NCBI GenBank assembly: GCA_021397835.1
Contig: JAJFZO010000230.1
Location: 3,590,001 to 3,654,000, forward strand
Length of the DNA stretch: 64,000 nucleotides
Direction: 5' to 3'
DNA from: Moringa oleifera
Lineage: Eukaryota > Streptophyta > Magnoliopsida > Brassicales > Moringaceae
Shown: piece after piece, positions 2,396 through 62,787 of the stretch
Numbering within the stretch: the first letter of the stretch is position 1
Layout of the letters: the number at the start of each line of letters is the position of its first letter
Notes under the pieces: model-generated
What the model saw: the letters and a program-made list of their open reading frames with translations, nothing else
Database searches by the model: none
Told to the model about the DNA's origin: nothing
Made by a program: the position numbers and the translations under genes

Positions 2396-2599
2396 GGTAG
2401 CATTCTCGAAATTGACAGGTGGACTTGTAATAACAATCAAAGGGCTTAAAGATGGTTTTTTAGACAAAACTCGCTAAACCGTAGAGATTACGTGGGTAAA
2501 CCCTTTTAAAAAAAAAAAAAAATCCCTTTGCAGCATGAATCAGTGAAAGGCTATAGCAGTCCAAGTGCCATCAACCGAATCCGCCGGCCGTTAACAGAA

Positions 2600-25480: not shown

Positions 25481-25908
25481 CTGATGAACGAGCTCCGAGT
25501 CTAATTAGAATGGAAGTAGTAAAAGGGTCTCGATAAATAAATAGTAGATTAGGTTACAATCTATAAAGCAGTTTAAGTAGGGACTATAAACGGGTGAAGT
25601 GATAATGGTGGTAGCACTATTTGAGGCAAAACTAAATTAGGTCGTGGAGCCTGACAAAATTGTTGAAACATTGAGGGAATTCAACAACATAATGCAATCA
25701 GGGCTCCCTAAAACATTGCTTTCAAGGAGAAATGTCGATCATAAGATTAATTCGCTAAACCCTCTACCCAAGCACCATATCAAATACCTCCGTCAGAATT
25801 AGCTAAACTGCAAAAGCTCCAGACGAGCTATTAGAAGTGGGTTTCATTCAATGGTTGAAGGTCCTTTATCATGCATCTATGTTATTCCATCAAAAGTAAG
25901 ATGACTCA

Positions 25909-26367
25909 TTGAGAATATGCGTTGATTATCGAGTACTGAACATGTTAATAGTAAAGAACAAATACCCAGTGAAAAATATCACTGACTTATTTGATTGGTT
26001 ATTGAGGGCCAAGTACCTTACAAAGCTAGACTTATGGTCGGACTACTACGAAGTCAAAATAACTGAGGAGGACAAAGCAAAAATTGCATGCAATATAAGG
26101 TATGGCTCTTATGAGCTTGTGTTGATATCCTTCGGGCTAACCAATGCACTTGCTATCTTTTACAATCTTGTGAATAATGTACTGTTTGAGTTTTTGGATA
26201 AGTTTGTGGTAGTCTACCTGGATGACATTATGGTCTATAGTGAGAGCCTAGACAACCACATAAGCCACTTGTGGAAAGTATTGATGTGGCTGCGAGAACA
26301 CCAGTTATACATCAAGAAGGAAAAACGCAAGTTTTATAAGCAAGAAGTGCCATTCTTGAGGCATTAA
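25909..26367 (+). pseudogene. chromovirus reverse transcriptase, still open frame
   Basis: An uninterrupted 152-codon frame shows the RT palm. Landmarks are RICVDYRVLN, YLTKLDLWSDYYEVKITEED, YGSYELVLISFGLTNA, and the active-site box VVVYLDDIMVYS, which retains the YLDD aspartates. Substitutions such as SDYYEV for SGYWQV and ISFGLTNALAIF for MPFGLTNAPATF show decay. The frame is open by chance in an otherwise broken polyprotein. Confidence 0.85.
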
Positions 26368-37790: not shown

Positions 37791-40700
37791 TGAGGAAAAA
37801 TATGATAATAAGGATTGATAGTCCACAAGGTTCCTAGGCTGATATTGTGTACATTGGAAATCATTGTATTGATGTGTATGATGTGGATGTCAACAAAGTC
37901 CTGAGAAAAATATCCATATTGTTCTGTTGCACTTATTATATGGCTCTGATTGATTGCATTGGGACCAAAGAGTTTGATATATACTATTGATTAGTTACTG
38001 CATAATAAGGAAATTATGCAAACATATTGGAAGCTAAACCAGATTACGTAAAGCACAAGGTAGAGCCAATTTGAGAATTTGTTTAAAATGTAAGTTATTC
38101 TGATGTGATTAAACCTTTGATTTCGTTTGGATCTAAGATGTTTTGTGAGTGTTTTTTGGTTCCTGGGTATTGGTACATCAAAAATCAATAAATTGGGTTT
38201 TAATTTGTATGTTTCTTTTTTCTTGAAACTTAAAATTAATTGCTTACTTTGAAATTTATTAATAAAAAAAAATTGTTCTATTATCAATAAGTGCATAGAG
38301 TCACCTTAAAGCTGTTGTGGACAAAGTCAATAGCTTGGTTAATGACTTAGGAAATTGGCCAGATAGCAAGAAATATAAAGTCTCTTAATAATGGAATATA
38401 TTATGAATTACTGCAAAAAATTAAATGTGAATATTTCTTATAAATGTTGTCAAACCTTTTTAATCACCATAATACTTTTGAATGTGTGTAATATGCGAAG
38501 TTATTTATCGTATCAATATTTATTTATAAATTATTAATAACAGTAATAAATAATAAATTATCTAGAATTATAATTTTAAATTTTAAATTCAAAATATCAA
38601 ATAAATCATAAAATTTAAATTTACAAGTATATATAACATAAACAATTTAAAGTTCAATAAAGTATTTACAACTCAATAAAGAACAGAAATAATAATAATT
38701 CACGAATAAATGTATCCAAGATACAATTTCAACTACATTTATTTTTTATTTAAATTTAAATTTAATTTAATTTAAATATTATTATAAAAATTAAAAATAT
38801 TTAAATTAAATTTTTGGAACAAATTTTGATTTCAAATTTTTATTAATATACATAAATATTTAAATTACAATCACACAAAATTTAAAATTTTTTGAGTATT
38901 GAAAATATTTAAAAAATATGCAATAAAAAATTTAAAAATTCATAAAAAATAATTTATGAATTCAAAATTATTCTAATTTAAGTTATTGATTCAAAATAAA
39001 TGTAAAATTCACTTAAGTAATTTTTTAAGCATTTTAATTATAAAAATACTTTTAATTTTTATAGTTGATTTAAGCTAAGTTTAATTTCAAAGAAAAATTA
39101 ACTCAAATTAAAATTTAAAATTTATTAAATTTAAAATTTTTATATTTACCTGTAAATTTATTCAAAAAAATTATTTCAAAATATTTTCATCATTTGTTAA
39201 AAATATGTTGCATTTGTTGTGAGATTAAAACATCAAATGCGCCTCACTTGAAATTCATTTTTTTAATAATATTTTTAAACCAATGAATATTTTTATAAAT
39301 TTTAATTATATTTAACTTCCTTGAAAAAATAAAATTTTAAAAATAATTGTTTTGATTTTTTTTTTTCAATCTTTTTGTTCATCCCTTATAATATTTTAAT
39401 TTTTACCCGTTAAAATTAACACGGCTAAAATTGTCATTGAATTCTCATATGTTCATAAAAATTTTACAATTGATTGTAAAGTGATTTATAGAAAAAAAAA
39501 ATGTTTCCTTCTTTGATCATTATTTTCTAATACAAGTTTAAATTATCTTATCTATTTATATAATTATTTTAAATTATTATACAATAATTTATATAAAAAT
39601 TTAAATATTTTAAGAATAAATTAAGTTTTAATCTGACGTTATATCATAATTTTGATAATTTTCATTCTTTTATAACAATATTTAGGCTTAATCTATAAAA
39701 ACTCAAAATGAGTTTGAATAATTTAAAATATATGAAATATATTTTTTATATTGATTAAAAATTAAGATCTTTGATAATAATAATCTGAAAAAAATATTTT
39801 TATAATTTTAGATAATTCTTTTAAAGGAAGATGTAACGTATATTAATGGTCTAAATTTTTATGTGATAAATTAAAAATTTTGAACAAAATTTAAATAAAA
39901 ATAAAACATCACCTGAATTATTAAAATTTATAAAAATAATTTTTAAAATATATAAATTAATTACTTTTATCAATGGAAAATTTTTATTTATGTTCAATTA
40001 TGTCAAAAAAATTAATTATCTTATTAATAAAAAATCTTCATTAAAATTTGAATACAAAAATTTAAATGATAGTTTTATATTTCAAAAATAAATAAATAAT
40101 ATATTTTATGTAAAAATAATTAAAGACACTTGTTTATCACTTTATCTTAAGTTTTAAATATCTATAAAATTGTGTCTGATCATAACATATTATAATATGC
40201 ACCAACATGTATGATATGATATTATAATATTTTCGATATTATTAACAACATACATCACTGTGTTTAATGTAGAAGCATAATTAAATATATTTTGTTAATA
40301 CAAAGATTAATTTTAAAAATTCATATTATTATTATAAAAATAAATTTAACTTTTTCATTTGTTTTATTAAACTACGGTTATTCTCATCTATTTAAGGATT
40401 TGAAAGTAATCCTATAATTCAAGATTTAGTCACAGTTAACGTTTTTGTGGATTATAAAAGTTAAGATTATTTTATTGATTTTATAAAAACTAAAAATTAA
40501 ATTTCAAATATTATAAAATTAAATTTTAAAATATTTTAAAATAAAAAATGTAAAATCCATATTAATGTTTACCTAATATTGATGTGAATTCTTTGAAAAT
40601 ACTCAATCTAATTATTTTATTGTTATTGTTATTAGCTATTCAAAAAATCTATAAATGATCCTTACATTTAATTCACGAAAACAAAGGTCAATAAATGTAG

Positions 40701-42300
40701 CCAATAATGACAGTCCATATTTTGTTTTAAGCTTTGATTTTATCCGTTTATTTATTTGTTTTTCATTAGGTGTTTTGCATGCTTCTGAATTTTAAATAAA
40801 TTTAAGTTCCCCGTTTAATACAAGATTTGCTCTTTGAATTTTAGTTTAATTAGGTTTTTAGAAAGGTAATTGGTCACATTATTCCTTAGAATAAATAAAT
40901 AAATTGTGATTATGATAAGATTTTGGATATTCATTGATTGCCAACTCTATCAACAATGTGGGAATTGCTAAAAAAAAAAAAAAAGAAGTAAGGAGGAAGG
41001 ACATATATGGAACAATATATTTATTGATTTTATGAATTTTTAAAATATATTTAAGGATATTATTTGCCTTCCTAATTAATCATGGACTGGATTTTGTGTA
41101 ATATCAATTATAAACATAAAAGTTTCAAAGAAATAACATCAACTTCTGATTGTGTGCAAATAAATAAAAATATTAATTTAATTATTTTTTGTATTTTTTA
41201 ATAGTTTGAATAAAAATATTGTTAAACAATAAAGGAAGGAGAATCCGTATTTTTAATTTCTTTTTTAAAAATACCTAAGAAAAAATAATTAACTCTTTTG
41301 TTTTCTCATTCTCTCTCTTTACTTTCTCTCTTTCTTTAATTAAGTGGAAAATTTTGTAAGTTTGAGTTCATAACTATTTTGGAGTTTTCTTGTTTTGATT
41401 TATAATTATATTATTATTATTTTTTATCATTCTCTTTTAGTGAAATTGTAAAGACCTTCTGTGGATGTAAAAGTGATAGTTTGAGATTTTTTTTTAAACA
41501 AAGAAAATAACATACAAATTTGAATTATTTTTTAAAAATAATAAAATTTAAAAATTCAAATTTTTTATTTTTTTAAAAATATAATCTTTTTGAATTAGTT
41601 ATAAGATTTAAACGAACAATTAAGTAAAAAAATAAGATAAAGATTATATAAAATTTTAATGTTTACTTCATATTATCAATCAAATTTTTATATTCAAAAA
41701 GTGGTAATTTTAATTTTGATATATTAATTTAATATCAAATATGATCTTAACTCAAATAATTATAAAAAATTAAAAATATTTTTATTAGCAAATACTTCAA
41801 AATAATTTAAATGATTCATCTCTTAAATTTAAGTAATTTTCAACACCATATATGTTTTTTATATTTTTTAAAATTTTAATAATATAAATTTTTATATATA
41901 TAGTATTCAAAAAATTTTAAAACTTTTTGAGTCCATAACTTAAGTATTTTTAACATTGATGAAAATTTTTAATCAAAATTTATTGCATAAGATTTTTAAT
42001 TTAAATATTTTTAATTTTAAATTTTTAATAAAATTTAATTTTAATTAATATATTAATATTCTATTTATTATTTAAAAATTTAATTAATAATATAAATAAA
42101 TATCAAAATTTTATACATTTTTTATTAAAAATATTTAAATTAATTTTAAATTAATAAATATGATATATAAATTTTAAAAAATATATAATATGTTGATTAT
42201 AATATTACCTTAGGTTGACTGAAGATAATATCAAACGATATAATTTGAACTTCTAAAAACAAATGGGAAAAGATTTCCGGTTTTGACCTTAGAATGTTTG
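37791..42300. other. 3' flank and long AT-rich spacer
   Basis: This starts with the 3' UTR of the DUF1475 gene. From about 38.4 kb the DNA is extremely AT-rich. It holds copies of the dispersed AT-rich repeat (38760-39130 plus orientation, about 41690-42010 minus orientation). No gene was recognised. Confidence 0.45.
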
Positions 42301-42882: not shown

Positions 42883-45800
42883 ATGGCGGCAGCAGTGGCG
42901 GCTCAGACTGCGACACCTGCGGCTGTGGCGGCGGCGGCGGCTGCTGTTATGGTATCCAGCGGGTACGCGAACTCGTCGCTCTACGTGGGGGATCTGGACC
43001 CCAACGTGAACGAGAGCCAATTGTACGATCTCTTCAACCAGGTCGCTCAGGTTATCTCCATTAGGGTTTGCCGCGATCAGCACAAGCGGTCTTCCCTCGG
43101 TTACGCCTATGTCAATTTCAGCAATGCCCTTGACGGTAACGTTTATACAATTATCATAAATCTTCATATGTGCTGATATATATCTGACTTTTCCTATCAT
43201 GATGATTATGATGATGATGGTATTGTTATTCTCTGATCTGGGAGCATTTGTGGGTTCTTCTGTTTGTTTGTGGAGAAGTTTTAAAAAGTTTGTCCTTGCT
43301 GTGTTGATCAAGCGATACATAGTCCTCTGCTTTTCTTACCTTTCTTTATGATTATTCTCGATATTATTTCCCTTTTTTATGGGCAGAAGTGTTCCTTTTC
43401 AGAAACTCTGGATGATGTTCTGCTGTGTTATCAGCAAAGGAGGCAGGGGATTTTTTAAAACTACTGTTTGTTGTTTTAAATTAATTTTAAAATATATCTA
43501 TCTGTATATGATTGTAAATCTATGTATCAGTCCTTGATACTGAAAATATTTTCTAGTAATTCCCTTCTGTAACTATTTTCTAGTAATTCCCCTTCTGTAA
43601 CTACTTTCTTTCTCTCGAAAATTGTATGCCATTTTACATTTTAAAATTTTTGGGGAAACATCCCTAGTTCTCTCTAAGGGAAGGTCTTTTTGCATGTTAA
43701 TGATGTTGGCTAGGGTACATTGGGAGTCACCAAGTGACTTTCCCTCACTATGGGGTCAATTTCTTGTATTTTGAACCAGTAAATCTACTCTGCTAGTTTC
43801 TGGTTTCTGGTAGCCTCATCAGCAGATAAGTTCTGAACAGGCTTATTTTCCTCTGAAATTATGCAAGGGACTGTGAGAAACATAGCGTCAATATCTGTGT
43901 ACAATGATTGATGCATGCTCTGCTTTTACTAGTAATTATATGTTCATATGTAATCACTGTTGTGCATGATGCTCAATACACAATACATGCATCTATTTAT
44001 TTTGAAATTATCTAATGTGAAAAAAAAATGTCAAATCTTTGCGCACTTACTGTTAAAAGTAAAATACTGAACCAGGGGATTTAAGAAGTTGGGGCATTAC
44101 GTTGTTGTTTCCTCATGTTATCGCTGAATATATTTATTTTAATTGCGACTCGTATACTTTTCAGCTGCCAATGCCATGGAGGTTCTGAATTTCACACCGA
44201 TTCATGGCAAACCTATAAGGATCATGTTTTCTCATCGAGATCCTAGTATCCGGAAAAGTGGATATGCAAATGTTTTCATCAAGAACCTGGACCCATCTAT
44301 TGACAACAAGGCACTGCATGACACCTTTGTTGCCTTTGGGAACGTACTTTCTTGCAAGGTAGCTGTTGATGGGAACGGGCAATCCAAAGGATATGGCTTT
44401 GTTCAATTTGAAAATGACGAAGCTGCGCAAAGTGCAATCAAACAGTTAAATGGCATGCTGATAAATGACAAGAAAGTGTATGTAGGACTCTTTATCCGAC
44501 GCCAAGAAAGGGCTCGAGCAAGTGTATCACTGAAGTTCACCAATGTTTTTGTGAAGAATTTGCTGGAAACAACAACTGATGAGGACTTGAAGAAACTCTT
44601 CAGCCCCTGTGGCACCATTACCAGTGCAGTTGTTATGAAGGACCAGAATGGGAAGTCTAGATGCTTTGGTTTTGTAAACTTCCAGACCCCAGAGGCAGCT
44701 GCTGCTGCAGTTGATAAACTTAATGGAGCCACTCTCAATGATGACCAGGTGCTGTATGTGGGAAGAGCTCAGAGGAAATCAGAAAGGGAAGCGGAGTTAA
44801 GAGCTAAATTTGAACAGGAAAGGATCAGTAGGTATGAAAAACTGCAAGGCTCGAATTTGTATCTGAAAAATCTTGATGACAGCATAAATGATGAAAAACT
44901 GAAGGAGTTGTTTTCTGTATTTGGAGCCATCACATCTTGCAAGGTATTTTCCAGTTTTAAAGTGAATTGTAATTTATCGATTTCTCCCTTATCTTCACAT
45001 TACTTTTTTGCTCTCCACTTTCTACCTAGTAATATCTTGTGCGAATATTTTTCCCCCTATCTATTTTTTAGGTTATGGTTGATTCACAAGGTGTGAGCAA
45101 GGGCTCTGGCTTTGTTGCATTTTCCACACCAGAGGAAGCTTCAAGAGCTGTAAGTTAATATTTTATATCTGAAAGTTCCCCTGATCGTGATCCTTTTGAC
45201 CTTTCCCATTTGGGTTCGATTAATATGAATGTTTTTCATGTCAATTCCTTTTCAGTTGAACGAAATGAATGGTAAAATGATTGGACGGAAACCTCTGTAT
45301 GTTGCTGTGGCCCAACGCAAAGAAGAAAGGAGGGCTAGGCTGCAGGTGATCTTTGAACTTCTACTTCTCATCAATAGAATTTGGATCTACTTCTCAGTCA
45401 CCTCCATGGGCTGTGTTAAATGTGGATATAGATCTATGGTTCTTCCTTTTTTTTCCAAATTTATTTTTCTTGTTGGTGACTTAAATCATTTTTGCTCCAG
45501 GCACATTTTTCTCAGATTCAGGTACCAGGCGGACTGTCGGCTTTGCCTTCAGGAATTCCTGGTTATCACCCTGGAGCACCTAGGCTTGGTCCTCAGCAGC
45601 TGTATTTTGGTCAAGGTACTCCCGGTCTGATACCCTCTCAGCCTGCAGGGTATGGATTCCAGCAGCAACTCTTGCCTGGAATGCGCCCTGGTGTTGGCCC
45701 AAACTTCATTATGCCATATCCCCTGCACAGGCAGGGACAACCAGGTCAGCGGATGGGTGTCAGGCGCGGGGGAAATCCCCAGCTGATGCAACAGCAGCAA

Positions 45801-46511
45801 CAGGTACCCCTTAGCCTGCTATCTCAGTTCTTTACCTAAAGGCTGCTGTAGAAAAAGATTAGTTATTAATTTTCATTGTTTTCCAATTGTTCCCCATCCA
45901 TGTTTATATCTTTTTTTCTTGGGCCTATTTTCCAAATTCAGCTCCTTCAGCGGAACTCCAATCAAGGCTTCAGATACATGGGCAACGGCAGAAATGGAAT
46001 GGAGTCTTCTGTAGCTCCTCAAGGTCTTATGGGTCCTATGATGCCTTTGCCCTTGGATGCTTCAGGGATGCCTATGACTCCTATTGATGCCCAGAGACAC
46101 GGCCCTGCTGTGCCTATTTCAACACTAACATCTGCCTTAGCTTCTGCAACACAAAAGGAGCGTACAGTGGTATGTGTGATAATTTTGTCCGCCACTCGCC
46201 ATGATATTCGAATCTCATGATTTTGATACTTCTGTTATGATAGAAATGTGAACATGATTGTGCTGTGTGTGCTGAATTTGCAGATGCTGGGTGAGCAACT
46301 TTACCCCATGGTGGAACGTCTTGAGCCGGGTCATGCTGCTAAGGTGACAGGAATGTTGCTGGAGATGGACCAAACTGAGGTACTCCATCTTATCGAGTCT
46401 CCAGATGCTCTGAAGAGGAAGGTGGGTGAAGCAATGGAAGTGCTTCATCAATCTGCAGCTGCAGGATCTAATGTAGATGATCAGCTTGGCTCATTGGCAC
46501 TCAATGACTGA
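42883..46511 (+). CDS. PABP: cytoplasmic poly(A)-binding protein (four RRMs and MLLE)
   Basis: CDS is join(42883..43135, 44165..44943, 45072..45149, 45256..45345, 45501..45803, 45942..46169, 46284..46511), 652 residues, close to plant PAB2/4/8 lengths. The N-terminus is Ala-rich. RRM1 is about 28-108 (RNP2 LYVGDL at 33-38, RNP1 LGYAYVNF at 72-79). RRM2 is about 118-195 ([14 protein letters not shown]). RRM3 is about 209-287 ([14 protein letters not shown]). RRM4 is about 313-390 ([14 protein letters not shown]). A Pro/Gln/Gly/Met-rich linker follows. The last exon (578-652) is the MLLE/PABC domain with [21 protein letters not shown] and the end LGSLALND. The protein binds mRNA poly(A) tails, supports translation and mRNA stability, and recruits PAM2-motif partners. 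The MLLE exon starts in phase 0, as does the related exon at 55355. Confidence 0.96.
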
Positions 46512-49190: not shown

Positions 49191-52100
49191 ATGTCTTTGG
49201 ACTCGCATATAGAGAAGGTCCTGTTCTCTAAGGACCAAATCGCCCAGCGAGTCACTGAGCTTGCTTCTGAGATCAAAGACGACTTCAAGGACGAGCCTCA
49301 ACCGCCAGTGCTTGTCGGCGTAGCAACTGGTGCGTGCTTGTTCTTTGCTGACCTCCTCAGGCTTATCGATTTGCCAATCTTTCTCGATTTCGTTCGAGCT
49401 GAATCCTACGGCTCCGGCACCCTCTCCAATGGTGCTCCCAGGATAACTCTCGACTTGAAGCTCGATGTCAAGGGCAAGCACGTTATTTTGGTGATGCTAT
49501 ATGTCTCACTCTGTACTTACGTATCCACAGTTATATATATATATATATAACTGTGTGTGTGTGTATATGTATGTATATTTGCTCGACTGCTTGCTTACTC
49601 GTTCTTTGTAATAAGCAATGGACTGTGTTTTCTATCACAAGAAGAAATGGTTGGTGCGAATACTAAAAATTTGATGTTATTTTTCGCTATTTGATTTTAC
49701 ATTTTTTGAATTTATGGAAAGAAAAAAAACCAAAAAGAATGGGTGAAATCTTCAGAGATCATAACCAGAGAAGTAACCCCTCATTTTTCACTTTTTCCTT
49801 TGCAATGTATGGAAAATCAGTCCTTTTCTTTTCAATTGGAACTTTTATGGCGGGTCCTGTTCCTTAATCAATTTATTTCAATTTTGAGATCAATGAGTGA
49901 ATTTCTTTTGTCTTTGAGAGAATCATTCTGACATAACCCAATACTTGTAAGGGATTTAGCTTTTGTCTTGTAACTACCAGTTGTACTTGAAGATGGTGAT
50001 AATTTTGTTTGTTTATAGAGATCTACTGCTCTACCAAGACAATTTAAAGGATTATTTACCCATATCTCAACACTTTGAAGTAGTGACCATGTCTGTAAAC
50101 TGTTGGATCAATAAATTGCACAGATTAACTTTTATAATCGAAAAGTTGAATATGAAGAGAAATTAAGTGATTTATTCAAGATGACATCTGGAGTAATAGA
50201 TATCTTGTTTATTGACAAAGCTTTGCACAGATTTAACTTTTATAATCAAAAAGTTGAATATGAAGAGAAATTAAGTGATTTATTGAAGATGACATCTGGA
50301 GTTATAGAAATCTTGTTTATTGACAAAGCTTCTCTTCTTCTGCATGCATGTCCTTCCTGGAATTTTCCTTAATACTTTAGAACAAAAATTGACTTTCACT
50401 TTCAATATTCATATTTTTTTTCTTTTTAATCAGAGACATAGGAATGTATATAACTTCCAATGTTCAGATCTAGGAGTAAATATTAATATAATCAGCTGCT
50501 ACTTGGCAAACAAAGAGAAGAAAAGTGTTAAAATTTTGAGTTTCAGTCATTAGTAATTTGCAGAAGACAAGATCGAACATGCACTCACCAATTGCACTAA
50601 AATTCGTTAAATGGATGGCAGATGGGTAGTGTGGTAACATTTGCTGCTTTACTGCTTATTGCATTTCTTTTCCTCTGCATACTTCTGGATTTCATTTACC
50701 TGCCACTTCCATAAACTATTAGATCTTATTAGCTATGAGAAAGTACTATGAGTTTATTCCCTAATATAGTGGCTGAAAAGATTATGAAGATATAGTATAC
50801 AGGGATGTGTTTTATGCCTTATAATATATGCATGATGATTATATAGATAAGTAGGCTAATTACAGCTGATTTGCTGCATTGCTTAAATTATTCTTTTCTT
50901 GTGTCCAAAAGAAGAAAGAAATAGGAAAGTTTTAATATTGCAGTTAATGTGAAATGAGAACATCATAGTGAATGTTTCACATGTTGTAAATTGTGGTAAT
51001 TATTCTTCTGTATCAGGTTGAGGACATTGTGGATACAGGAAGTACTTTGTCCTGTCTTATTGCACACTTGGAATCAAGAGGAGCATCCTCAATTTCAGTT
51101 TGCACATTCCTTGACAAACCAGCAAGAAGAAAGATTCAGCTTGAGCTAGTAGGGAGAGGAAAATTCTACAGGGGGTTTCAGGTAACATCAATCTTTCGAT
51201 TTCTCAAATTTTCTTGCTCTCTCTCTCTCTCTCTCCTCTCTCTCTCACATTTTCGGGTGTGAAGTTCATGTTAGATGTTTGAAGTATATGTCATTAACAA
51301 TCTATTACTTACATTTCTTGGCCTAGAGTTTCATCACGTTCCTCCAACCTGAAAGGAAACAGATCTCACTTCTCCTTTAAAAAAAAATAAAATTGATGAG
51401 GCCTCGTCACTGGGTTGTTACTGTACTACTAGTGTTTAGTTGCATCACTCTCTTTCTCAAATGCATTCTCTGGCAGACTAGCATTGAATTATCTGATTGT
51501 TCTTTTGTATGTGATATGTGCTCCTCCTGGAAAACATATACAATGTTAGTCTTGTGAGAAACCTGTCAAATACGTCTGACATAAGAATCCAATTTATTTT
51601 GGGAAGTCATTCTACGCCAATGGATGACGTTGATGTACCTAGAATGGTCAAGTCAAGTGAACTTAATCAGTTATTTATGTAGTTTACCTCATACATCACA
51701 TTTTTTTTTTCCTTTTGTTGATTGATCTATAGTAATTTATGCAAGTCAAAGTCTAATTTGACTCCTATCCTAATAATAATCACAATGTTTCAATTTCATG
51801 CCGTCAATTATCTGCTCTCTTCAAGATAAATATTATCAAATAAACATCATGAACATCCAATTCATTTATTTGTAGCGAAGCCGATGTTAGCATTTATTTT
51901 CTAATATGATTCTATAGCATTTATTGTTGATGGACTGCATTATGGTTTATGGGCACTCCTTAGCTTAGACACCAGTCTCATAATATACGAATTTGACAAT
52001 TTGGAGTGTCTAGATTGAGTGTATTTCTTAGGATTCTCTTACCTGAAAGTAAGTGTTAGACCTATCTACTTTGATTGATCAAATGCAGCTTTTACGTTCT

Positions 52101-53400: not shown

Positions 53401-55540
53401 ATGAGAAGAACTAGTAAAGCACTTGTAATCAGCCTCTCTTTCTCTTCAAAGCTCCTTTCTGCAACGGAAGTATCATCAACCATGAAGTATTTTCCGTTGG
53501 TCAGGCCTCTCTCCACTACCACCTCCAAAAATGAAGACAAGAATTCGAAAGTTCCAGAGAAACCGAATAAGAAGCACTCATTTATTCTTGAGCAGTTCAG
53601 GCTTAGGAAACTCAAGGGCTCTCAAGAAGCTAGCTCGCAAAGTAAACACGTTGGAAGTACAACGACTTGTAGTTCCACTGGTGTTGAGATGGCAAGAAGA
53701 AGAAGTGAGATTGGTCTGGAGAATGAGAAGGGTGGGCCTACTGAGATGGTCTCCGGCTTCAAAGAACTGGGATTGAGAGAGGAGGTCATAGGGGCTTTGG
53801 GGGAGATGGGTGTTTGCGTTCCTACTGAGATTCAGTGTGTTGGAATACCAGCTATTTTAGATGGCAAGAGTGTTATCTTGAGTTGTGAATCTGGATATGG
53901 AAGGACCTTGGCTTATTTATTGCCTCTCATTCAGGTATTCTTCTTGGTTTAATAAAATGTTTCTTCATTTGTGTTAATGAAATTTGTTGTCAAATGATAT
54001 AAAACCTGTCTTTATTTGAAGTTTAATTTGTGATTTGGTTGAGTTTTGATCGGGAGCTTGCTGTTGCCTTTGTTTATTATTATCATTGTTTTTGGGGTTC
54101 CTAGGTTGAAGAACTTTAATTTGATTATTGAACACCTGACTGCTGTCTTTTGCTGCATTTCCCCTTCCTGCTTATATGGGTTTGTTGAATAGCCCTTTTG
54201 GTTCGATTTGATATTTGTATTTGAATATTTGCTGCAAACTTCCTGTCAAGCCAAGTGATGCTGAGGATTTGTAGACTTTCTTATCTAGCATTTTACTCCC
54301 CTATTTGCTTTTAAGTCATAAAATGTTATTTTCTGGTGGGCGGATTTGTACTTAATTAACTCTCCTCCTTTGCTGTGCTTATGGAGTTTTTTCTGGTATA
54401 ACCTTTTGCTTCAAAGGTCCAAAGGGGATTATTTATGAACTAGAATGGTGAAATTCAATGGATAAATGATACAAAGCAATATATTGATGACCTAAGAGAG
54501 AGAGAGAGAGAGAGAGAAGAAAGATCACTTACCATATGCTAATATATGCAGCAACTGAGGCAAGATGAAGCATCAGTTAGCATGAAGCCCAAGCATCCTC
54601 GGGCAATTGTGTTATGCACAACAGAAGAGCAATCTGATGAGGTCCGTTTTCTTTGCAATTATAAGAATGTGTGGCTTAGATAACATATGAGTACTTCCTG
54701 ATGGACTCTGCAGGCTTTTCATGTGGCAAAGTTAATAAGTGATGGGGCTATATTGAAATCTACACCTAAAAATGGTCACAACCAGTCAAAAGGTCCTGAG
54801 AATTTTTCGAATGCTCCGATTGGCATGTTAGTCGGCACACCTAGTGAGGTGCTACAACAAATAGAAGAAGAAACTGTGCTCTGTGATGACATCAAGTACT
54901 TGGTCAGTATCATTTTACTTAAAAGGTGACTGAAATCTTGACAATGTTCTATCATCTTTCTTTTTGCTGTTTGGGTTGAGAAAGAAATGTGTCACTCCAG
55001 AGTGTAGTTTTCTGGGGAGAGTGCACACTGTTGTGCCCTTGAAATCCACCTTCTAGTATTTCTGATGATGTCAAAACTCTCTGGGTAGGTACTGGATGAA
55101 GCCGACACCATGTTAGATCAAGGGTTTGGTCCTGAAATTCAGAAGATTTTAAACCCATTGAAGAACCGAGCAGGATTTCAAACTATTATAGTTACTTCGA
55201 CAGTGACTGAGGTACAGACCTACTGTTAGCTTATCAGAACTATTTTATCTTGTTTTAGAACCCTTGGCTTTGTGATGAAACTAGAAAATTATGGCACCTT
55301 TTGGACTGCAAGTAGCTGGTTCTGAATTTTACTTTGTGTTATTCAAAATCCCAGATGTTGGGCAAGCAACTGTCTCCTGTCATGGAGTGCCTTGAGAACA
55401 ATCATACAGGAAAAGTAACTGCCATGATGATGGAGCTTGATCAAAGAGAGGTATCTGATTTCATCGAGTCTCCCAATGCTCTGAAACAGAAAGTGGCTCA
55501 AGCAATTGATTCTTTTCAAGCAGATGGATTAGGATCTTGA
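53401..55540 (+). CDS. chimeric protein: inactive N-terminal half of RH39-type DEAD-box helicase fused to an MLLE (PABC) domain
   Basis: CDS is join(53401..53934, 54552..54641, 54714..54902, 55089..55211, 55355..55540), 373 residues. All introns are GT-AG and phase 0, with no stops. Exons 1-4 match exons 1-4 of RH39 downstream in order, phase and size (178/30/63/41 versus 177/32/63/47 codons). The N-terminus is Ser/Thr/Arg-rich like an organelle transit peptide. The Q-motif region (PTEIQ, 141-145) and DEAD (274-277) remain. Motif I reads CESGYGRT (162-169) with Lys changed to Arg; PTRELSEQ has become TTEEQSDE (201-208); TPGR has become TPSE (250-253). The second RecA lobe is absent. Exon 5 (313-373) is instead an MLLE domain: [24 protein letters not shown] (normally [10 protein letters not shown]) and [14 protein letters not shown] hydrolysis and unwinding are unlikely; a peptide-binding or RNA-binding adaptor role is inference. 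Expression is unproven. Confidence 0.88.
54494..54517. repeat. (AG)n microsatellite in intron 1 of the chimeric gene
   Basis: About 11 AG units lie roughly 35 bp upstream of the exon 2 acceptor. Confidence 0.85.
55355..55540 (+). other. MLLE (PABC) exon acquired by the RH39 duplicate
   Basis: This exon begins ATG TTG GGC AAG CAA in phase 0, just as the PABP MLLE exon at 46284 begins ATG CTG GGT GAG CAA. The two remain alignable without gaps over about 54 residues, with roughly half of the residues identical by eye, then the tails differ. The PABP tail (QLGSLALND) is missing. The Gly and Leu-Leu of the signature TGMLLE are replaced (TAMMME), so PAM2-peptide binding may be changed. Confidence 0.85.
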
Positions 55541-56140
55541 TGTTGCTGGTCATTAACATAGAGGAAGCCTCATTTAGTGCCTATACATCTGTTTATGTTT
55601 CTAAAAGGAGCCTGTTCCTTTCCTGTAGGCTCATGAGTTTGTCTGGTTTGTAGGGTTCTTATTGTAAGCACATGCTTCCATTCTCTGTTACATTACATCA
55701 TATTCCAGATTAACCATTTTACTGTCTTCTCCTTTGGCTTGGTATCAAGAAACTTGAAGAGTTGACAATTTCAGATTATTTGCTTCCATCCTTCTGTTTG
55801 ACTATTCTCAACCAGAAGCAGACTTGGTCTCAGGAGACCATTATTCTGCTTTGCCTTTCCCCACATAACAAAAAAAGGGAAAGAACCAAATGTTCCAGGG
55901 AGGCTGCGACGAGAGCCATGAAAAAATTGTCCCGAGTTCTGGCATCTATTATTTAGGCTTTCTTAGCTTCACTCCTGTGAACCATCTTTACCTGCAAATG
56001 CTGTCAGAGGGATGTGCTGCAGAAGAAAATAAACTCTGCTGGGTTTTAGTCATTCTACCATTCAGGTTACTATTGTTAAATTCTGATTTATAGTGCACAT
56101 GTTGTAAGTTTGGTATACTCAGAATTTGTTGAAAGAATAA
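55541..56140. other. 3' flank of the chimeric gene
   Basis: This is probable 3' UTR. I looked for remains of the missing C-terminal half of RH39 (the motif V and VI region) and found none. Short open frames here have no recognisable product. Confidence 0.5.
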
Positions 56141-56279
56141 TTCACGAGACATTGTTTATTTTCATTTTATTTTATTAAAAATAAATTTTAAATTTTGTAT
56201 AAAAATTATATAAAACTTTAATATGTGGTACATATTATTAATTAAATTTTTATATTTAAAAAATAATAAATTTAATTTA

Positions 56280-56640
56280 ATTTATTAATTTATTTTAAAT
56301 TAAATTTTAACTCAAATAAGTAATTATATTTTTGTTGTTGAAATACTTCAAAAACATTTCAAATAATTTTTTCACATAATTTCAAATTCATCTTTTAAAT
56401 TTAAATAATTTTTTATTTAAAATTTATTTTTTAAAAGTTTTTAAAATATAAATTAAAAAATATATAATTTTAATATTTAAAGAATTTTTTATAACAATAA
56501 CTTGAATATTTTTTATATTTTAAAAATTTTTTAAGTTAAATTTTATTATAAAAAATTTTTAATTTTAATATTTTTAATTGTTAATTTTTTTGATATTAAG
56601 ATTTGATTAATAATTTTTTAAAAATAAAGATTTATCAGTA
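56280..56640. repeat. dispersed AT-rich repeat family, minus-oriented copy
   Basis: Read in reverse, it shows the same core series as at about 8573, 8765 and 39028: an ATTTTTT-GA-ATTT stretch, then ACAAAAATAT, then a TTTGAGTTAA stretch. It is strongly diverged. Confidence 0.4.
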
Positions 56641-56689
56641 ATATGAAATGAATATAAGAGTTTTACATAAATTTTATCTTTCATTTTGG

Positions 56690-57120
56690 TTAATTATGTT
56701 AAAAAACTTACATTTTTCTCATGGTCTTAAATTTATATTTATTTAAAATTTATATTTTTATTAAATTTTTAAAATAAAAATTTTATTTATAATTTTTGTT
56801 ATCATTAACGATTTTGCTTACACATGTGACATGTATATTATTTTTATTTATATAATTATTTTAATATTATTAAAACAAATAAAATATTTTTATATTAAAA
56901 TTAATAAAAAATATATAAAATATAAATATTTAAATAAAATAAAAATAATTTTTAATTTTACAAAATTTAAAAAATATTAAGATAATTACATAATTAAAAA
57001 TCACATATACATAACAAGTGAATAAAATCATTAATATTGCTAAAAATAATAAATAAAAGTCTCATTTTAAGAATTTAATAAAATCATAAATTTTAAATGG
57101 ATATAAATTTTTTATATATT
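56690..57120. mobile_element. palindromic AT-rich MITE, copy 2
   Basis: The left arm has AAAATTTTATTTATAATTTTTGTTATCATTAACGA, then TTACACATGTGACATG, then TATATAATTATTTTAATATT. The right arm read in reverse gives the same order (CTTTTATTTATTATTTTTAG, CACTTGTTATGTATATGTG, TATGTAATTATCTTAATATT). It is the same family as 48035-48525. It lies between the chimeric gene and RH39. Confidence 0.6.
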
Positions 57121-57377
57121 TTGATTTGATATTAAAAATAAAATACAAAATTTAATCATATTATGAATTTTTATTTTTTATAATAATAAAAATTTCTTAA
57201 ACTTGTTTTTATATTTTGTTAATAAATTTATAAACACACTGTAATAAAATATCAGCCATTTTTGTGTACCACTTGGGCGAGAAAAGTGAATGAGATAATG
57301 ATGTAAAATTAACAATTTCAATTTAATCATAACATATTTCTATACATTTTGTTTCCGTGAAAGGATATATTTTTTAT

Positions 57378-57671
57378 TTAGAGCATATGATCTTCTGTTG
57401 CGATGCTAGGATAGTTGGATTGAGACTTGGGGAAGACCCGAACGAACTCCGTGCTCAGATCCGAAAAATATCCAACTGACGGCCGACCTCCCAGATGGCC
57501 CATTGGGCTGTCAGTGATCCGAATCCTCTTCATCTCTTTGTCTCTCCTCCCGGCTGGTTTATCAGAACTATCCACTGATTTTTCGTTTTCACACGAGTGC
57601 TGGCTGCGCTGCAAGTAAACCTCCCCTACTAACCAAAAGGGCAGTCAAAACCAAAGAACTGTGAAGAGAAA
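57378..57671. promoter_or_regulatory. upstream region of RH39
   Basis: This less AT-rich block precedes the RH39 start. A minus-strand open frame (57378-57614, 78 codons) runs through it. It has no known product and may be chance. The region more likely holds the RH39 core promoter and leader. Confidence 0.4.
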
Positions 57672-60600
57672 ATGCACAAAGCCATGGGAGGAACATCAAG
57701 AACAATTCTCTCCCTATCTTTCTCCTCCACGCTTCTTTCTTTCTCCAAACACTATCATGGTTTTCCATCTCTTAGGCTCCCAAAACCTTTGACCCGGGTT
57801 GTGCAAGGGTTTAGGCCCCTATGCACCACAACAGTCACAGCAACCCCAGAAACTAGTGAACCAGACAAAATGAAGCACGCAATCCTCCTTGAGAGACTCA
57901 GACTTAGGCACCTCAAAGACCCTGAAAGACCCCAACAAGCCAAAGCGCCACCTCAGTCATCGGTGACTGTTTTCGAGGAGAGTGAGAGCAAGAATAAGAA
58001 AGCGAAGAAGAAGTTCGTCGGGAGTTTTGAGGAGTTGCGAGTAAGTGATGAGGTCATGGGTGCTGTGAGGGAGATGGATATTGAGGTCCCCACTGAGATA
58101 CAGTCTATAGGGATCCCTGCTGTTTTGCAGGGGAAGAGTGTGGTCTTGGGTTCTCATACTGGCTCCGGGAAGACTCTTGCTTACATGTTGCCTCTTGTCC
58201 AGGTGCTTTCTTCGTAGCTGCTTATTCTTTCTTTCTCTTTTTGCTTTGAATGATATATGCTGTTTCGCTCTAATTTATGGATTTTTCCACACTCGACGTT
58301 GCCTAACACTAGAAATTTGAAGTGGCTTTTCGCGTTTTCTTGTGCTTTTGGGCTATTTATTTTAATTTCTGTTAACAGAATTGAAATTTTCATTTTTCTT
58401 TTGTCATTGAATTGTGTGGTGTTACCTCAAAGTTGAAGTTTTATGGCATTTTGCCTTGTTAGCCCATGGAATTATGAGGTGGCTTTGATTTTAGCTCAGA
58501 TTTGGGGACTGCAGTTATTATTTGTTTCCACCCCATTTTGACCTTGTTTTGATTTCTGTTGTTTTTATGGTTGGTTTCTATATGATGCATTGGATTTGTT
58601 GATTATTTTTAATGCCCATACTGGGTGGTTTCAGTGTGTTTTGATACAGGAAATCTTCAATGACACTTCTTCTACTTTCTAGTGGTTCCCTATCCGGTGT
58701 AATTTTCATTTGTCTTGATTTAGGTGTGTGGTCAGTTTTCAAAATGTGGCTGATTGATCAAGTTAGATTTTAGAATAATCTCATTGTTTGTGCAGGTTTA
58801 GTTTTATTTATAAGAATCGAAGGTAGCTGTATATAATTAATATTGTTACTGGAAGTTTTAAAACTTGAAAGAGATTCAATATTTAGTTCATCAATTTTGC
58901 AGTTGATGAGACAAGATGAAGCATTGTTGGGTAAGCTAATGAAGCCCAGGCGTCCTAGAGCTGTTGTGCTGTGCCCCACTAGGGAACTATCTGAGCAGGT
59001 TTATCTTTGCCTTGTTTCCCGTTTGTATATGAAACATTGCCTTCTCCTTTTGTTTAACTAATAATAGATTGGTATTTTAGGTTTTTCATGTAGCAAAGTC
59101 AATCAGCCACCATGCACGATTCAGATCTACCATGGTGAGTGGTGGTGGTCGGATGAGACCCCAGGAAGATATATTGAATAACCCAATAGACATGGTGGTT
59201 GGAACTCCTGGCAGAGTTCTTCAACATATTGAGGATGGAAACATGGTTTATGGTGACATCAAATACTTGGTGAGAATCCTAATGGAGTTACTTAAATTCA
59301 TTTCCTACAAATTATTGTGCTCTCTTTTGTATTGATGTTTAGAGATCTTGTGAATAACTTGCATGCCTTGGCTAGTCTTTGTTATTGTAATTCATGGTTC
59401 GCTTCATGATGTTGGCAATCTCTAGTAGGTGCTGGATGAGGCAGACACCATGTTTGATCGTGGCTTTGGTCCTGACATCCGCAAGTTTCTTGGTCCGTTA
59501 AAACATCGTGCGTCAAAACCAAATGGACAAGGATTTCAGACTATTTTGGTCACTGCAACAATGACAAAGGTATTCTGACTTGTGAAGGGGAGGGATTGCA
59601 TGTCACCTGGAAACCAATATGTTTACTTTTAGTTATGTTGTCAAATAAAATGAGTTGTTTCCTTCTCTTACTTAAGCACATACAAGTTGGTGTCCTAATA
59701 GGCTGCCATTGGTGAGGTGCTCTGTCTTTTTTTTTCACGTAACTTGTGCAAATGTGTAAGTTGTGCTATTGTGTGCAACTACTTGCACAATAAACATTAG
59801 AAAGAATTCAGTCCCATTGTTGCCATTCTAAAATTTGCTATTGATTAAAAAAGAAATGATTGATGACCTAGCCTATAAATTGAGCTTATAATTCCAGTAG
59901 ACTTTAGTTTGGGAAGGTCTGGAGGGCAAGTATTTTAATGGAGATAGGCTGTGCCATTGGGTAAAGAAAAGGGAAGAAAATCCCTCTGACTGAGAGTAGC
60001 ACCCTAGCAGATTCTGTGAATGTAACCCTAAAATTGAAATCCTTAACATCACTCTTGTTGGAATTTGACAAATCGTGTATTTTGTTGTGCAATTAAGGAA
60101 GTTTCTTGTACATGATATTTGAAAGAAGTTGGACAACTGACTTTCTGAGGTTTTAAAGGCAGTGCAGAAGCTGATTGATGAGGAGTTTCAAGGAATATTG
60201 CATTTGCGAACATCAACATTGCATAAAAAGATAGCGTCAGCTCGTCATGATTTCATCAAACTTTCAGGTTCTGAAAACAAGCTGGAAGCGTTGTTACAGG
60301 TCTACTTTTTGGTGCTTTCTTATTCGTTTTCAATTGGTTATCTATGAAGCCATAAAATTGTGGTAAACGTATAATTGGCATTATTGAGTGCATGCAGCTC
60401 TACATTGACGCAAATAAATGTCGTGGAAATATTAGCCTAAGTTTTATGGCTTCAGAAGCCACATGTTCACCATGATTGATTCTGTCTGGATGGTAATATC
60501 TGAAAATGGGGAACATACTTTCATGAATGCTGTTGATTTGTATTTTTATTGCAATTTTTTGCAGTGCCATTTGGCTTTGACTGTGGCTTGCTGGTAGACC

Positions 60601-62787
60601 TAGAATGTTGCTGTCTTTCATATAAACAACGTAAATTTCATGCAGTCATCTTGCGATTCAACTTTGCTTTCATGGTGCAGTAGGTTGTGTATATGAGGTC
60701 GGGGTGGTTCTTATGTCCATATCTTACCAATTAGAAGAAGAGTTTAGGTGTTGCAGGGATCCATCTTTCGTGTTTCGAGTACTTGCTGAACTACCAATGG
60801 AGATTAATTCTGACAGATTTCAGAAAATTAGTCCCCTTTGAAGTTGGTTTCCAGTGGAGCCTGAGTTACTTTTGTTGTTCACACTTTTTATATTCATGTT
60901 TACACATTCTGTTCGTGATGAATTTTTGTCATATGAAACAACCTATATGACATATTCGGGTTGCACCCACTTAGTTCTCTTTTGGATAAGCATTTTCCTT
61001 GATAAAAAATCTCCCTGCTCAGCATCTCATGACCTTCCCTAGCTGTCCCCTCTCAAATGTTGTAAAAGGAAAGGGGAAAAGAGGTTAAATGGAGAAAATA
61101 TTTAACATGGCTATAAAGCCAACAGCTTTTGCAGTGGTGGTTCATCTAACTAGGCTTAGGCACACTTAAGTTTATTTTACCAAGTGAAGGTGTTGAATCA
61201 ATTTGAGAAATTACTTTTGATATTACCTATGCACCAGGATCATTCTAATCAAGATGATCTACATTGGTTAAGCGGTAATGTTGGCAGGTTCTTGAGCCGA
61301 GCTTGGCTAAGGGGAACAGGGTGATGGTGTTCTGTAACACTTTGAATTCTAGTCGTGCTGTGGACCATTTCCTTGCTGAAAATCAGATTTCTACTGTCAA
61401 TTACCATGGTGAGGTGCCAGCTGAACAAAGGTGAGATGATGCTCGATCTTCCTGACATAATGGCTATGTTTTTGTCATATATATTGTGCATGCATATGTC
61501 CATGCATGTATGCCTAATCAAGAACTTAGCCCAATTGCATTACGATAACCAGGGTTGAAAACCTCAAAAAATTTAAGAGTGATGATGGAGATTGTCCCAC
61601 ATTGGTCTGCACAGACTTGGCTGCTAGAGGACTTGACTTGGATGTAGATCATGTTATCATGTTTGATTTCCCCTTGAACTCTGTAAGTATAGTTTATGCG
61701 GATGATTTGTTAGATTTTCAATTTAGCTTACCATTCATTTTCTCTCTGTATGTTTTATTTCTTTACTTTACTCTATTTGATAATGTGAATTTTTGATTTG
61801 TTTTCTTTAACCTTTTAGATTGACTACCTTCATCGCACAGGGAGAACTGCTAGAATGGGTGCAAAAGGTGCATCATTTATTTTGTTTTTTTATAATTATA
61901 TTTGGAATTTATGGCAATCTCTCATCAACTTTGACTTAAGTGCTGAGCACTCCCCAACCAATATGCCCCATAAAATAATTTTAAATTTTAAGGTCAGATC
62001 ATTGATCAGTTGACTCCCTAATCTTGATCTATATGTTCTAATATTAGCTAAATTGTACCAGCCCCCAATAACAACATCAGGGAAAAAAAAAAAAAAGAGA
62101 GAGAGGGAAAACAAGCAAACAAATAAATGCTTATAAAATTTATTAGTAACTATTTTGGTTGGCAACATAATCCTGTTCTGACATTTCTGCTGCTAAAACC
62201 GTATCTTTCTTTCTGATCAAGGACTTGTCAAGATTTGTGGCAATCACCTTCTCTCGTTTCTGAAATTGGTGATTAGACCTTGTTAACAATATTCTCTTCT
62301 CTTTTCAGGAAAAGTAACAAGTTTGGTGGCTAAAAAGGATGTGATGTTGGCAGACAGAATTGAGGAGGCTATAAGAAAGAATGAGAGCTTGGAATCCCTT
62401 ACTGTGGATAATGTCAGGAGGGATGTTGCCAGAACTCGAATAATGGAACAACAAGGAAAGAGTTCTAAACTAGTTAAAGTGTCAAGTCAGAAAAACAAGA
62501 TGAAAGCAGCTGCAGTGAAATCTTCTAGCAACTCCAAAAAGGTTGTGTCTGCCCAGGCTTCAGGAAGAAAGTTCCTAGTAGCAAAATCTGTGAAGACATC
62601 AACTGCAGCAAAATCTTCAAAGCCAGCAGTTAAGATTTCAAAATTTGCTAAATCCTCTGGTGCAAGTAGCTCAAAGAAGGCAACTCGGGGAAGGAGGAAT
62701 GAAGCGGAGAGCAGGAAGCCCGGTGCAGCTTCAAAACTAAGTGTTGTTGGGTTTAGGGGACGAGCTTCATCATTGAGATCCACTTGA
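57672..62787 (+). CDS. RH39: DEAD-box RNA helicase, RH39 type (organellar)
   Basis: CDS is join(57672..58202, 58903..58998, 59081..59269, 59429..59569, 60159..60299, 61288..61430, 61553..61682, 61819..61867, 62309..62787), 632 residues (Arabidopsis RH39 is about 620). The N-terminus is Ser/Arg-rich and acid-poor, as in plastid or mitochondrial transit peptides. All core motifs are present: PTEIQ (140-144), SHTGSGKT (161-168), PTRELSEQ (202-209), TPGR (251-254), DEAD (275-278), TAT for SAT (314-316), then [15 protein letters not shown] and [10 protein letters not shown]. The tail is Lys/Ser-rich, fitting RNA binding. Arabidopsis RH39 acts in chloroplast 23S rRNA maturation; the same role is inferred here. 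A second in-frame Met lies at residue 5. Introns 1-4 are mirrored in the truncated duplicate 2.1 kb upstream. Confidence 0.94.

What the first reader, a model, noticed from the sequence alone, without database searches (positions are those of the whole stretch)
53401..55540. New domain fusion: RH39-derived DEAD-box half joined to a PABP-type MLLE domain
Seen: five phase-0 exons without stops, in which four match exons 1-4 of RH39 and the fifth encodes an MLLE domain ([21 protein letters not shown]). Known: MLLE is the PAM2-peptide-binding domain of poly(A)-binding proteins and of UBR5-type ligases; I know of no DEAD-box helicase carrying it. Inference: a local duplication plus exon shuffling created an adaptor in which an RNA-helicase lobe is tethered to PAM2-motif partners of the mRNA-decay and translation machinery.
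Basis: partly seen in the sequence, partly recalled or inferred. Interest (0 to 1): 0.92.

Follow-up and report, generated by a model that had tools for sequence, protein, structure and literature searches.

The report
Ancient plant helicase–PABP fusion gene
A plant gene that joins half of an RNA helicase to the tail domain of a poly(A)-binding protein turns out to be an old gene found in many flowering plants, probably born when one stretch of DNA was copied in tandem between two nearby genes; its helicase half has lost parts it would need to work as a helicase.

Summary
The five-exon fusion at 53401-55540 is real: all exons are phase 0 with canonical splice sites, and Pfam finds DEAD (1.4e-26) and MLLE (8.3e-13). 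It is not new in this genome. Sixty-nine listed database entries (isoforms included), from about 12 core-eudicot orders, have the same architecture under helicase or hypothetical names; 22 sampled fusions separate from 34 RH39s (UFBoot 99).

MLLE sequence favours this PABP only weakly (UFBoot 81; other PABPs not rejected). The order PABP-HPRT-fusion-RH39 is what one tandem duplication, PABP last intron to RH39 intron 4, would leave after losing one HPRT copy.

The product is probably no helicase: the Walker A lysine is kept in 3 of 50, the motif Ia and Ib arginines in 0 of 50, against 34 of 34 RH39s. Several PAM2-contact residues changed, and a presequence-like N-terminus is conserved. I infer a non-enzymatic organellar docking protein; function untested. 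My searches found no paper describing it.

The parts
53401..53934 (+). Fusion exon 1: presequence-like N-terminus, linker, Q motif, changed Walker A (GYGRT)
54552..54641 (+). Fusion exon 2: former motif Ia (TREL of RH39 reads TEEQ)
54714..54902 (+). Fusion exon 3: former motif Ib (TPGR of RH39 reads TPSE)
55089..55211 (+). Fusion exon 4: DEAD motif II and motif III region (TST where RH39 has TAT); last RH39-derived exon
55355..55540 (+). Fusion exon 5: MLLE domain, PABP-type, includes stop
57672..62787 (+). Parent gene: intact RH39, 9 exons, 632 aa
46284..46511 (+). Last exon of the upstream PABP gene (MLLE domain plus stop): likely donor; starts at the same codon and phase as fusion exon 5
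43003..45093 (+). RRM-coding pieces of the same PABP gene (exact exon borders not modelled)
49191..51181 (+). HPRT (hypoxanthine phosphoribosyltransferase) gene between PABP and fusion; pieces matched at 49191-49535 and 51017-51181, ends not modelled

Best explanation
An old chimeric gene, made once, probably in an early core eudicot. Shown: it joins RH39 exons 1-4 to a PABP-type last exon at phase-0 introns; one copy is found here; sampled fusions separate from RH39s; the helicase lobe has lost residues for ATP and RNA contact; the N-terminus is acid-poor and S/T/K/R-rich. Inferred, origin: a single tandem duplication ran from the PABP last intron to RH39 intron 4. On an ancestral order PABP-HPRT-RH39 this leaves both parent genes intact and gives PABP-HPRTa-[RH39 e1-4 + PABP last exon]-HPRTb-RH39; loss of HPRTb gives the order seen.
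For: Gene structure, domains. Same architecture in 69 listed entries. Fusions separate from RH39s, UFBoot 99 (tree, support read). PABP last exon begins after AG at the same codon (561 in PABPC1 numbering) and phase as fusion exon 5. In the MLLE tree the upstream PABP is the nearest of six PABPs to the fusions, UFBoot 81, and has the best likelihood of five placements; exon DNA identity 111/168 against 94, 101 and 96/168 for three other PABPs of this genome. Similar dS of the two halves, 1.44 to RH39 and 1.32 to the upstream PABP. All four genes on + in the predicted order; HPRT found once. HPRT is upstream of the fusion also in merged models of Acer and Dipteronia. Arabidopsis PAB5 is At1g71770 (PMC4252990) and HGPRT At1g71750 (PMC9959217): by locus number near neighbours. 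Walker A Lys 3/50; motif Ia Arg 0/50 (D/E 44); motif Ib Arg 0/50 (Glu 49); against 34/34 RH39s. N-terminus 1.8% acidic against 13.3% in residues 61-311, 32% S/T, 42 of 48 with at most one acid.
Against: The MLLE sequence does not settle the donor: the AU test rejects none of the four alternative PABPs at 0.05 (p 0.06-0.54 against 0.63). Of ten sites where the upstream PABP differs from three others here, five lean to it (565, 572, 577, 601, 615), four to the others (569, 576, 608, 616), one to neither (605). No relic of a second HPRT copy is detectable between fusion and RH39. dS values are near saturation. Fusions evolve about 4.8 times faster than RH39 (91 species pairs), so weak constraint is possible. 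Three fusion-like listed entries carry no MLLE hit (P0031, P0047, P0053). Three of 50 keep the Walker A lysine (Carica, Lupinus, Crotalaria). Targeting rests on composition only. No expression data for this genome.
Confidence: 0.5

Rival explanations
1. The MLLE exon was structurally repurposed: it supplies the helix and last edge strand that the RecA1 lobe lost when RH39 was cut after motif III, so it stabilises the lobe rather than binding PAM2 peptides.
Against: The segment has high helix propensity (mean Pa 1.23 against 1.16 wheat and 1.12 human PABP) and a lower strand-type moment (0.29) than the RH39 strand it would replace (0.53-0.60). Exon 5 alone, single sequence, was modelled all-helical at low confidence (pLDDT 66). 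The full model may be pulled by its RecA context. MLLE still scores in 40 of 40 orthologues scanned.
Confidence: 0.25
2. One reading: a cytosolic adaptor whose MLLE binds PAM2 motifs of decay and translation factors.
For: MLLE HMM scores are good; G579 kept in 50/50, E587 49/50, A610 47/50, L586 and K606 46/50, G563 40/50, M584 37/50.
Against: Position 567 aromatic in 3/50 and deleted in 7/50; V613 replaced by S/T in 49/50; K580 kept in 26/50; T582 in 10/50; Q560 in 0/50 (contact list from passages of PMC2854688). Presequence-like N-terminus conserved.
Confidence: 0.15
3. Two-step or distant origin: partial RH39 duplication first, then an MLLE exon from another PABP gene inserted into intron 4.
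For: The MLLE exon border at codon 561 is shared by four PABP genes here, so the border alone does not name the donor; the AU test leaves the other PABPs open; some diagnostic sites favour them.
Against: Adjacency, strand and order fit a single event; likelihood, UFBoot 81 and exon DNA identity lean to the upstream PABP.
Confidence: 0.25
4. Gene-model artefact or decaying relic without a product.
For: Fast evolution; isoforms that skip exons, and a Gossypium isoform that loses MLLE.
Against: Open frame and architecture kept across about 12 orders; RecA1 and MLLE parts equally conserved (0.555 and 0.554 mean pairwise identity); P0130, 281 aa with both domains on a 1,241-base contig, looks like a spliced transcript (inference).
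Confidence: 0.05

Closest known systems
RH39, plastid DEAD-box RNA helicase (parent)
   Same: Exons 1-4, presequence region, RecA1 lobe; downstream neighbour in this genome
   Different: RH39 has both RecA lobes, and motifs I, Ia, Ib and II intact in 34 of 34 sampled; the fusion lacks RecA2 and has changed motifs I, Ia and Ib
Plant PABP with MLLE (the upstream gene; PAB5-like, class I, by its HPRT neighbour only)
   Same: MLLE exon, its border and phase, most of the signature
   Different: No RRMs in the fusion; several PAM2-contact residues replaced
UBR5/HYD-type MLLE proteins
   Same: MLLE outside PABP
   Different: Sequence far closer to plant PABP (46.9 against 17.8-19.1 bits); no HECT ligase part (recalled for UBR5)
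DEAD-box/Ataxin-2 chimaeras in termites and wasps (PMC12898128, passages)
   Same: DEAD domain fused to a member of the PABP interaction network
   Different: There the partner is Ataxin-2, a PAM2 protein, not MLLE; given as individual database entries

Membership tests
DEAD-box RNA helicase (functional) | Walker A GxGKT lysine | tested here: not met
   R in window (GYGRT); K in 3 of 50 fusions, 34 of 34 RH39s
DEAD-box RNA helicase (functional) | Second RecA lobe (Helicase_C, PF00271) | tested here: not met
   No Helicase_C hit in the window fusion or in the 40 orthologues scanned
DEAD-box RNA helicase (functional) | Arginines of motifs Ia (PTREL) and Ib (TPGR); their role in RNA contact is recalled | tested here: not met
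   Ia Arg in 0 of 50 (D/E 44); Ib Arg in 0 of 50 (E 49); Arg in 34 of 34 RH39s
RH39-derived RecA1 lobe | PF00270 match and RH39 exon structure | tested here: met
   E=1.4e-26; 55% identity to RH39
MLLE (PF00658) | Profile score above curated cut-off | tested here: met
   Window 48.6 against 27 bits; 40 of 40 orthologues scanned match at E<=0.001
MLLE, PAM2-binding | PAM2 contact residues (list from PMC2854688 passages) | tested here: inconclusive
   G579, L586, E587, K606, A610 mostly kept; 567 aromatic, V613, Q560, most T582 and half of K580 lost
MLLE fold | All-helical superhelix | tested here: inconclusive
   Strand in full-length model, helices in low-confidence exon-only model
Organelle-targeted protein | Acid-poor, S/T/K/R-rich N-terminus | tested here: met
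   Composition only: 42 of 48 with at most one acid in the aligned first 45 columns
Organelle-targeted protein | Import shown by experiment | not testable with these tools
   No call could test this

The most novel reading that the evidence does not exclude
An exon for a cytosolic peptide-binding domain (MLLE) was captured in one tandem duplication and changed both place and fold: inside plastids or mitochondria it now completes a cut RecA lobe (signature helix to edge strand), making an ATP-free, RNA-free pseudo-helicase that docks on or restrains the RH39 rRNA-maturation step in many core eudicots.
Probability: 0.1. Interest if true: 0.87.

Novelty: new variant of a known kind. Interest (0 to 1): 0.6.

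Why it matters
It is a conserved eudicot gene that databases often name a helicase although its motifs say it should not work as one, so annotations mislead. It offers a case of gene birth in which one tandem duplication between nearby genes could make a chimera and leave both parents intact, still readable from gene order after (recalled) some 100 million years. It also poses a testable puzzle: what an MLLE domain does behind an organelle-type presequence, or whether it is still an MLLE fold at all.

Tried and rejected
Rejected: UBR5-type source of MLLE (wheat PABP 46.9 bits, UBR5/HYD at most 19.1). Rejected: that the fusion is new in this genome. Rejected: that the HPRT of Acer and Dipteronia sits downstream of the fusion as a surviving second copy; Pfam shows it is N-terminal, so upstream. 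Also corrected: my 'motif III' rows were one residue off; RH39 TAT reads TST in the fusion, and I draw nothing from it. Tried: relics of a second HPRT copy in 55541-57671; tblastn gave only chance-level matches, and the long blastn hits there lie in AT-rich DNA in both orientations and were not counted. Tried: MLLE region search, only 14 hits. Considered, not tested: whether the Arabidopsis MPC gene (recalled, a PABP C-terminus gene) derives from the fusion; no protein search was left. Fold-search rows listed only DEAD-box or helicase-containing structures and no MLLE structure, which excludes nothing. AlphaFold of exon 5 alone was uninformative. Dropped rows: of 69 DEAD+MLLE entries listed I aligned 49 plus the window; left out as isoforms, near duplicates, partial or merged models: P0009, P0013, P0017, P0019, P0020, P0021, P0024-P0028, P0030, P0033, P0035, P0036, P0038, P0044, P0046, P0094, P0132. 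The MLLE tree holds four of the six PABP-type genes of this genome; the two with another exon structure (L005, L006/L008) were left out. One search counts 48 of 50; two lack the N-terminus. Absence from asterids, monocots, Vitis and others is not shown: each search lists only its best 120 (of 2249 and 651 hits).

Full report
Observation. The reading at 53401-55540 is correct. Five exons, all phase 0 with AG and GT borders, encode 373 aa. Pfam gives DEAD over 142-311 (1.4e-26) and MLLE over 310-364 (8.3e-13, 48.6 bits, cut-off 27). The RH39 parent follows at 57672-62787, nine exons, 632 aa. In the own genome (279.5 Mb, 669 contigs) MLLE is found at eight places, which I read as seven genes because two hits on C13 look like two exons of one gene; the fusion scores 52.4 bits. 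A search with RH39 finds no other close pair than RH39 and the fusion; the next best match elsewhere is 39% identical. HPRT is found only here (2 matches, both in the window).

Distribution and age. A protein search with the 373-aa product lists 63 of 120 rows with DEAD plus MLLE, and a profile search adds six: 69 entries, isoforms included. By recalled taxonomy they cover Malvales, Sapindales, Brassicales, Celastrales, Malpighiales, Fabales, Fagales, Cucurbitales, Rosales and Myrtales; Liquidambar (Saxifragales) and Nepenthes (Caryophyllales) were looked up. Source names are helicase names, often 'RNA helicase 39' or '39-like', or hypothetical protein. Three fusion-like listed entries carry no MLLE hit (P0031, P0047, P0053). 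In a tree of the RecA1 part (201 columns, 22 fusions, 34 RH39s) the fusions separate from RH39 with UFBoot 99, and fusions other than Liquidambar group with 100 (supports read without rerooting); placement among RH39s is unresolved. So it arose once among those sampled, probably in early core eudicots. Locus tags or shared contig lengths put fusion and RH39 next to or near each other in Reevesia, Diplodiscus, Jatropha, Hibiscus, Ricinus, Quercus suber and Trema; in Bauhinia and Citrus tags and contig lengths differ, and in Liquidambar the contig is shared but the tags are far apart.

Donor and birth. The window also holds a PABP gene on the same strand: RRM pieces at 43003-43173 and 44143-45093 and a last exon at 46284-46511 encoding MLLE (87.8 bits), ending 6.9 kb before the fusion. 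That exon starts directly after AG with codon 561 (PABPC1 numbering), phase 0, exactly as fusion exon 5 does. Three other PABP genes of the genome share this border, so the border alone does not name the donor. Sequence leans to the upstream gene without settling it: in the MLLE tree (56 columns, 50 fusions, 6 PABPs) it is nearest to the fusions with UFBoot 81 (a figure of 99 printed was a rerooting label shift); its placement has the best likelihood, but the AU test rejects none of four alternatives at 0.05 (p 0.06, 0.31, 0.54 and 0.40); exon DNA identity is 111/168 against 94, 101 and 96; diagnostic sites are mixed, five for, four against, one neither. Synonymous divergence of both halves from their parents is alike, 1.44 and 1.32, near saturation. 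The strongest argument is position: the order PABP-HPRT-fusion-RH39, all on +, is what one tandem duplication from PABP's last intron to RH39's intron 4 leaves when the second HPRT copy is lost; no relic of that copy is visible. The PABP-HPRT pair looks old: Arabidopsis PAB5 is At1g71770 (PMC4252990, passages) and HGPRT At1g71750 (PMC9959217, table passage). Merged gene models of Acer and Dipteronia place HPRT directly upstream of the fusion.

The helicase half. Among 50 aligned fusions the Walker A lysine is K in 3 (Carica, Lupinus, Crotalaria) and R in 45; motif Ia Arg is D or E in 44 and Arg in none; motif Ib Arg is E in 49 and Arg in none; motif II keeps D at its first and last place in 49 each (for Ia). 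All these are intact in 34 of 34 RH39s. There is no second lobe. It is therefore not expected to hydrolyse ATP or unwind RNA. That one residue, Glu, holds the Ib place in 49 of 50 suggests a new constraint. Fusions evolve 4.8 times faster than RH39 over 91 species pairs, yet RecA1 and MLLE parts are equally conserved (0.555 and 0.554 mean pairwise identity).

The MLLE half. Contact residues are taken from passages of PMC2854688. Kept: G579 50/50, E587 49/50, A610 47/50, L586 and K606 46/50, G563 40/50, M584 37/50. Lost or variable: aromatic 567 in 3/50 (deleted in 7), V613 S or T in 49/50, T582 in 10/50, K580 in 26/50, Q560 in none (the alignment near 567 has gaps). PAM2 binding is thus doubtful and may differ by lineage. 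AlphaFold of the Carica orthologue places the signature as a strand completing the RecA1 lobe, while helix propensity argues against this and the exon-only model is too weak to decide. I leave it open.

Location. The aligned first 45 columns are 1.8% acidic, 15% K/R and 32% S/T, against 13.3% acidic and 15% S/T in residues 61-311; 42 of 48 have at most one acid, and RH39 N-termini look alike (34 of 34). RH39 is reported as the chloroplast helicase for the 23S rRNA hidden break (PMC5442247, passages). I infer organelle import; no predictor was available.

Expression. Cassette skips of orthologous exons in listed isoforms (Carica exon 3, Durio and Herrania exon 2, Ricinus exon 4; a Gossypium isoform loses MLLE), and a 281-aa two-domain protein on a 1,241-base contig, suggest transcripts; there are no data for this genome.

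Literature. Searches with MLLE, DEAD-box and RH39, MLLE domain in plants, 'helicase 39-like', PF00658 with PF00270, DEAD-box with PABC domain and chimeric gene, MLLE with chloroplast and helicase and fusion terms gave no paper whose listing or passages, as far as I saw them, describe this gene; only open-licence papers are held, the lists were capped, and I read passages, not whole texts. One citrus cDNA-AFLP paper lists a fragment named 'helicase 39-like' (PMC4517394, passage); which gene it is remains unclear. The plant PABP family paper (PMC4252990) has 'helicase' twice; the 12 of 28 passages shown do not mention this gene.

Verdict. A real, old eudicot gene family, undescribed as far as I could search, with a likely readable birth.

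Noticed in passing
43003-46511 +: PABP gene, PAB5-like by its HPRT neighbour, upstream of the finding; likely donor of the MLLE exon.
   Followed up: yes
49191-51181 +: HPRT gene, found once in the genome, between PABP and fusion.
   Followed up: partly
25900-26364 +: Reverse-transcriptase fragment (PF00078, 1.4e-22): probably a retrotransposon piece.
   Followed up: no
10783-11145 +: Exon of a Ras/Rab-type GTPase (PF00071).
   Followed up: no
38001-42000 and about 56150-57300: Very AT-rich stretches (GC 0.17-0.18 in 38-42 kb).
   Followed up: no
2510-3052 +: Open frame of 181 aa with no Pfam match.
   Followed up: no
P0046, Ricinus: Isoform joins exon 3 directly to the MLLE exon, skipping the DEAD exon in frame.
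   Followed up: partly
P0017 and P0044, Dipteronia and Acer: Gene models merge HPRT and the fusion into one protein; read-through or annotation merge.
   Followed up: partly
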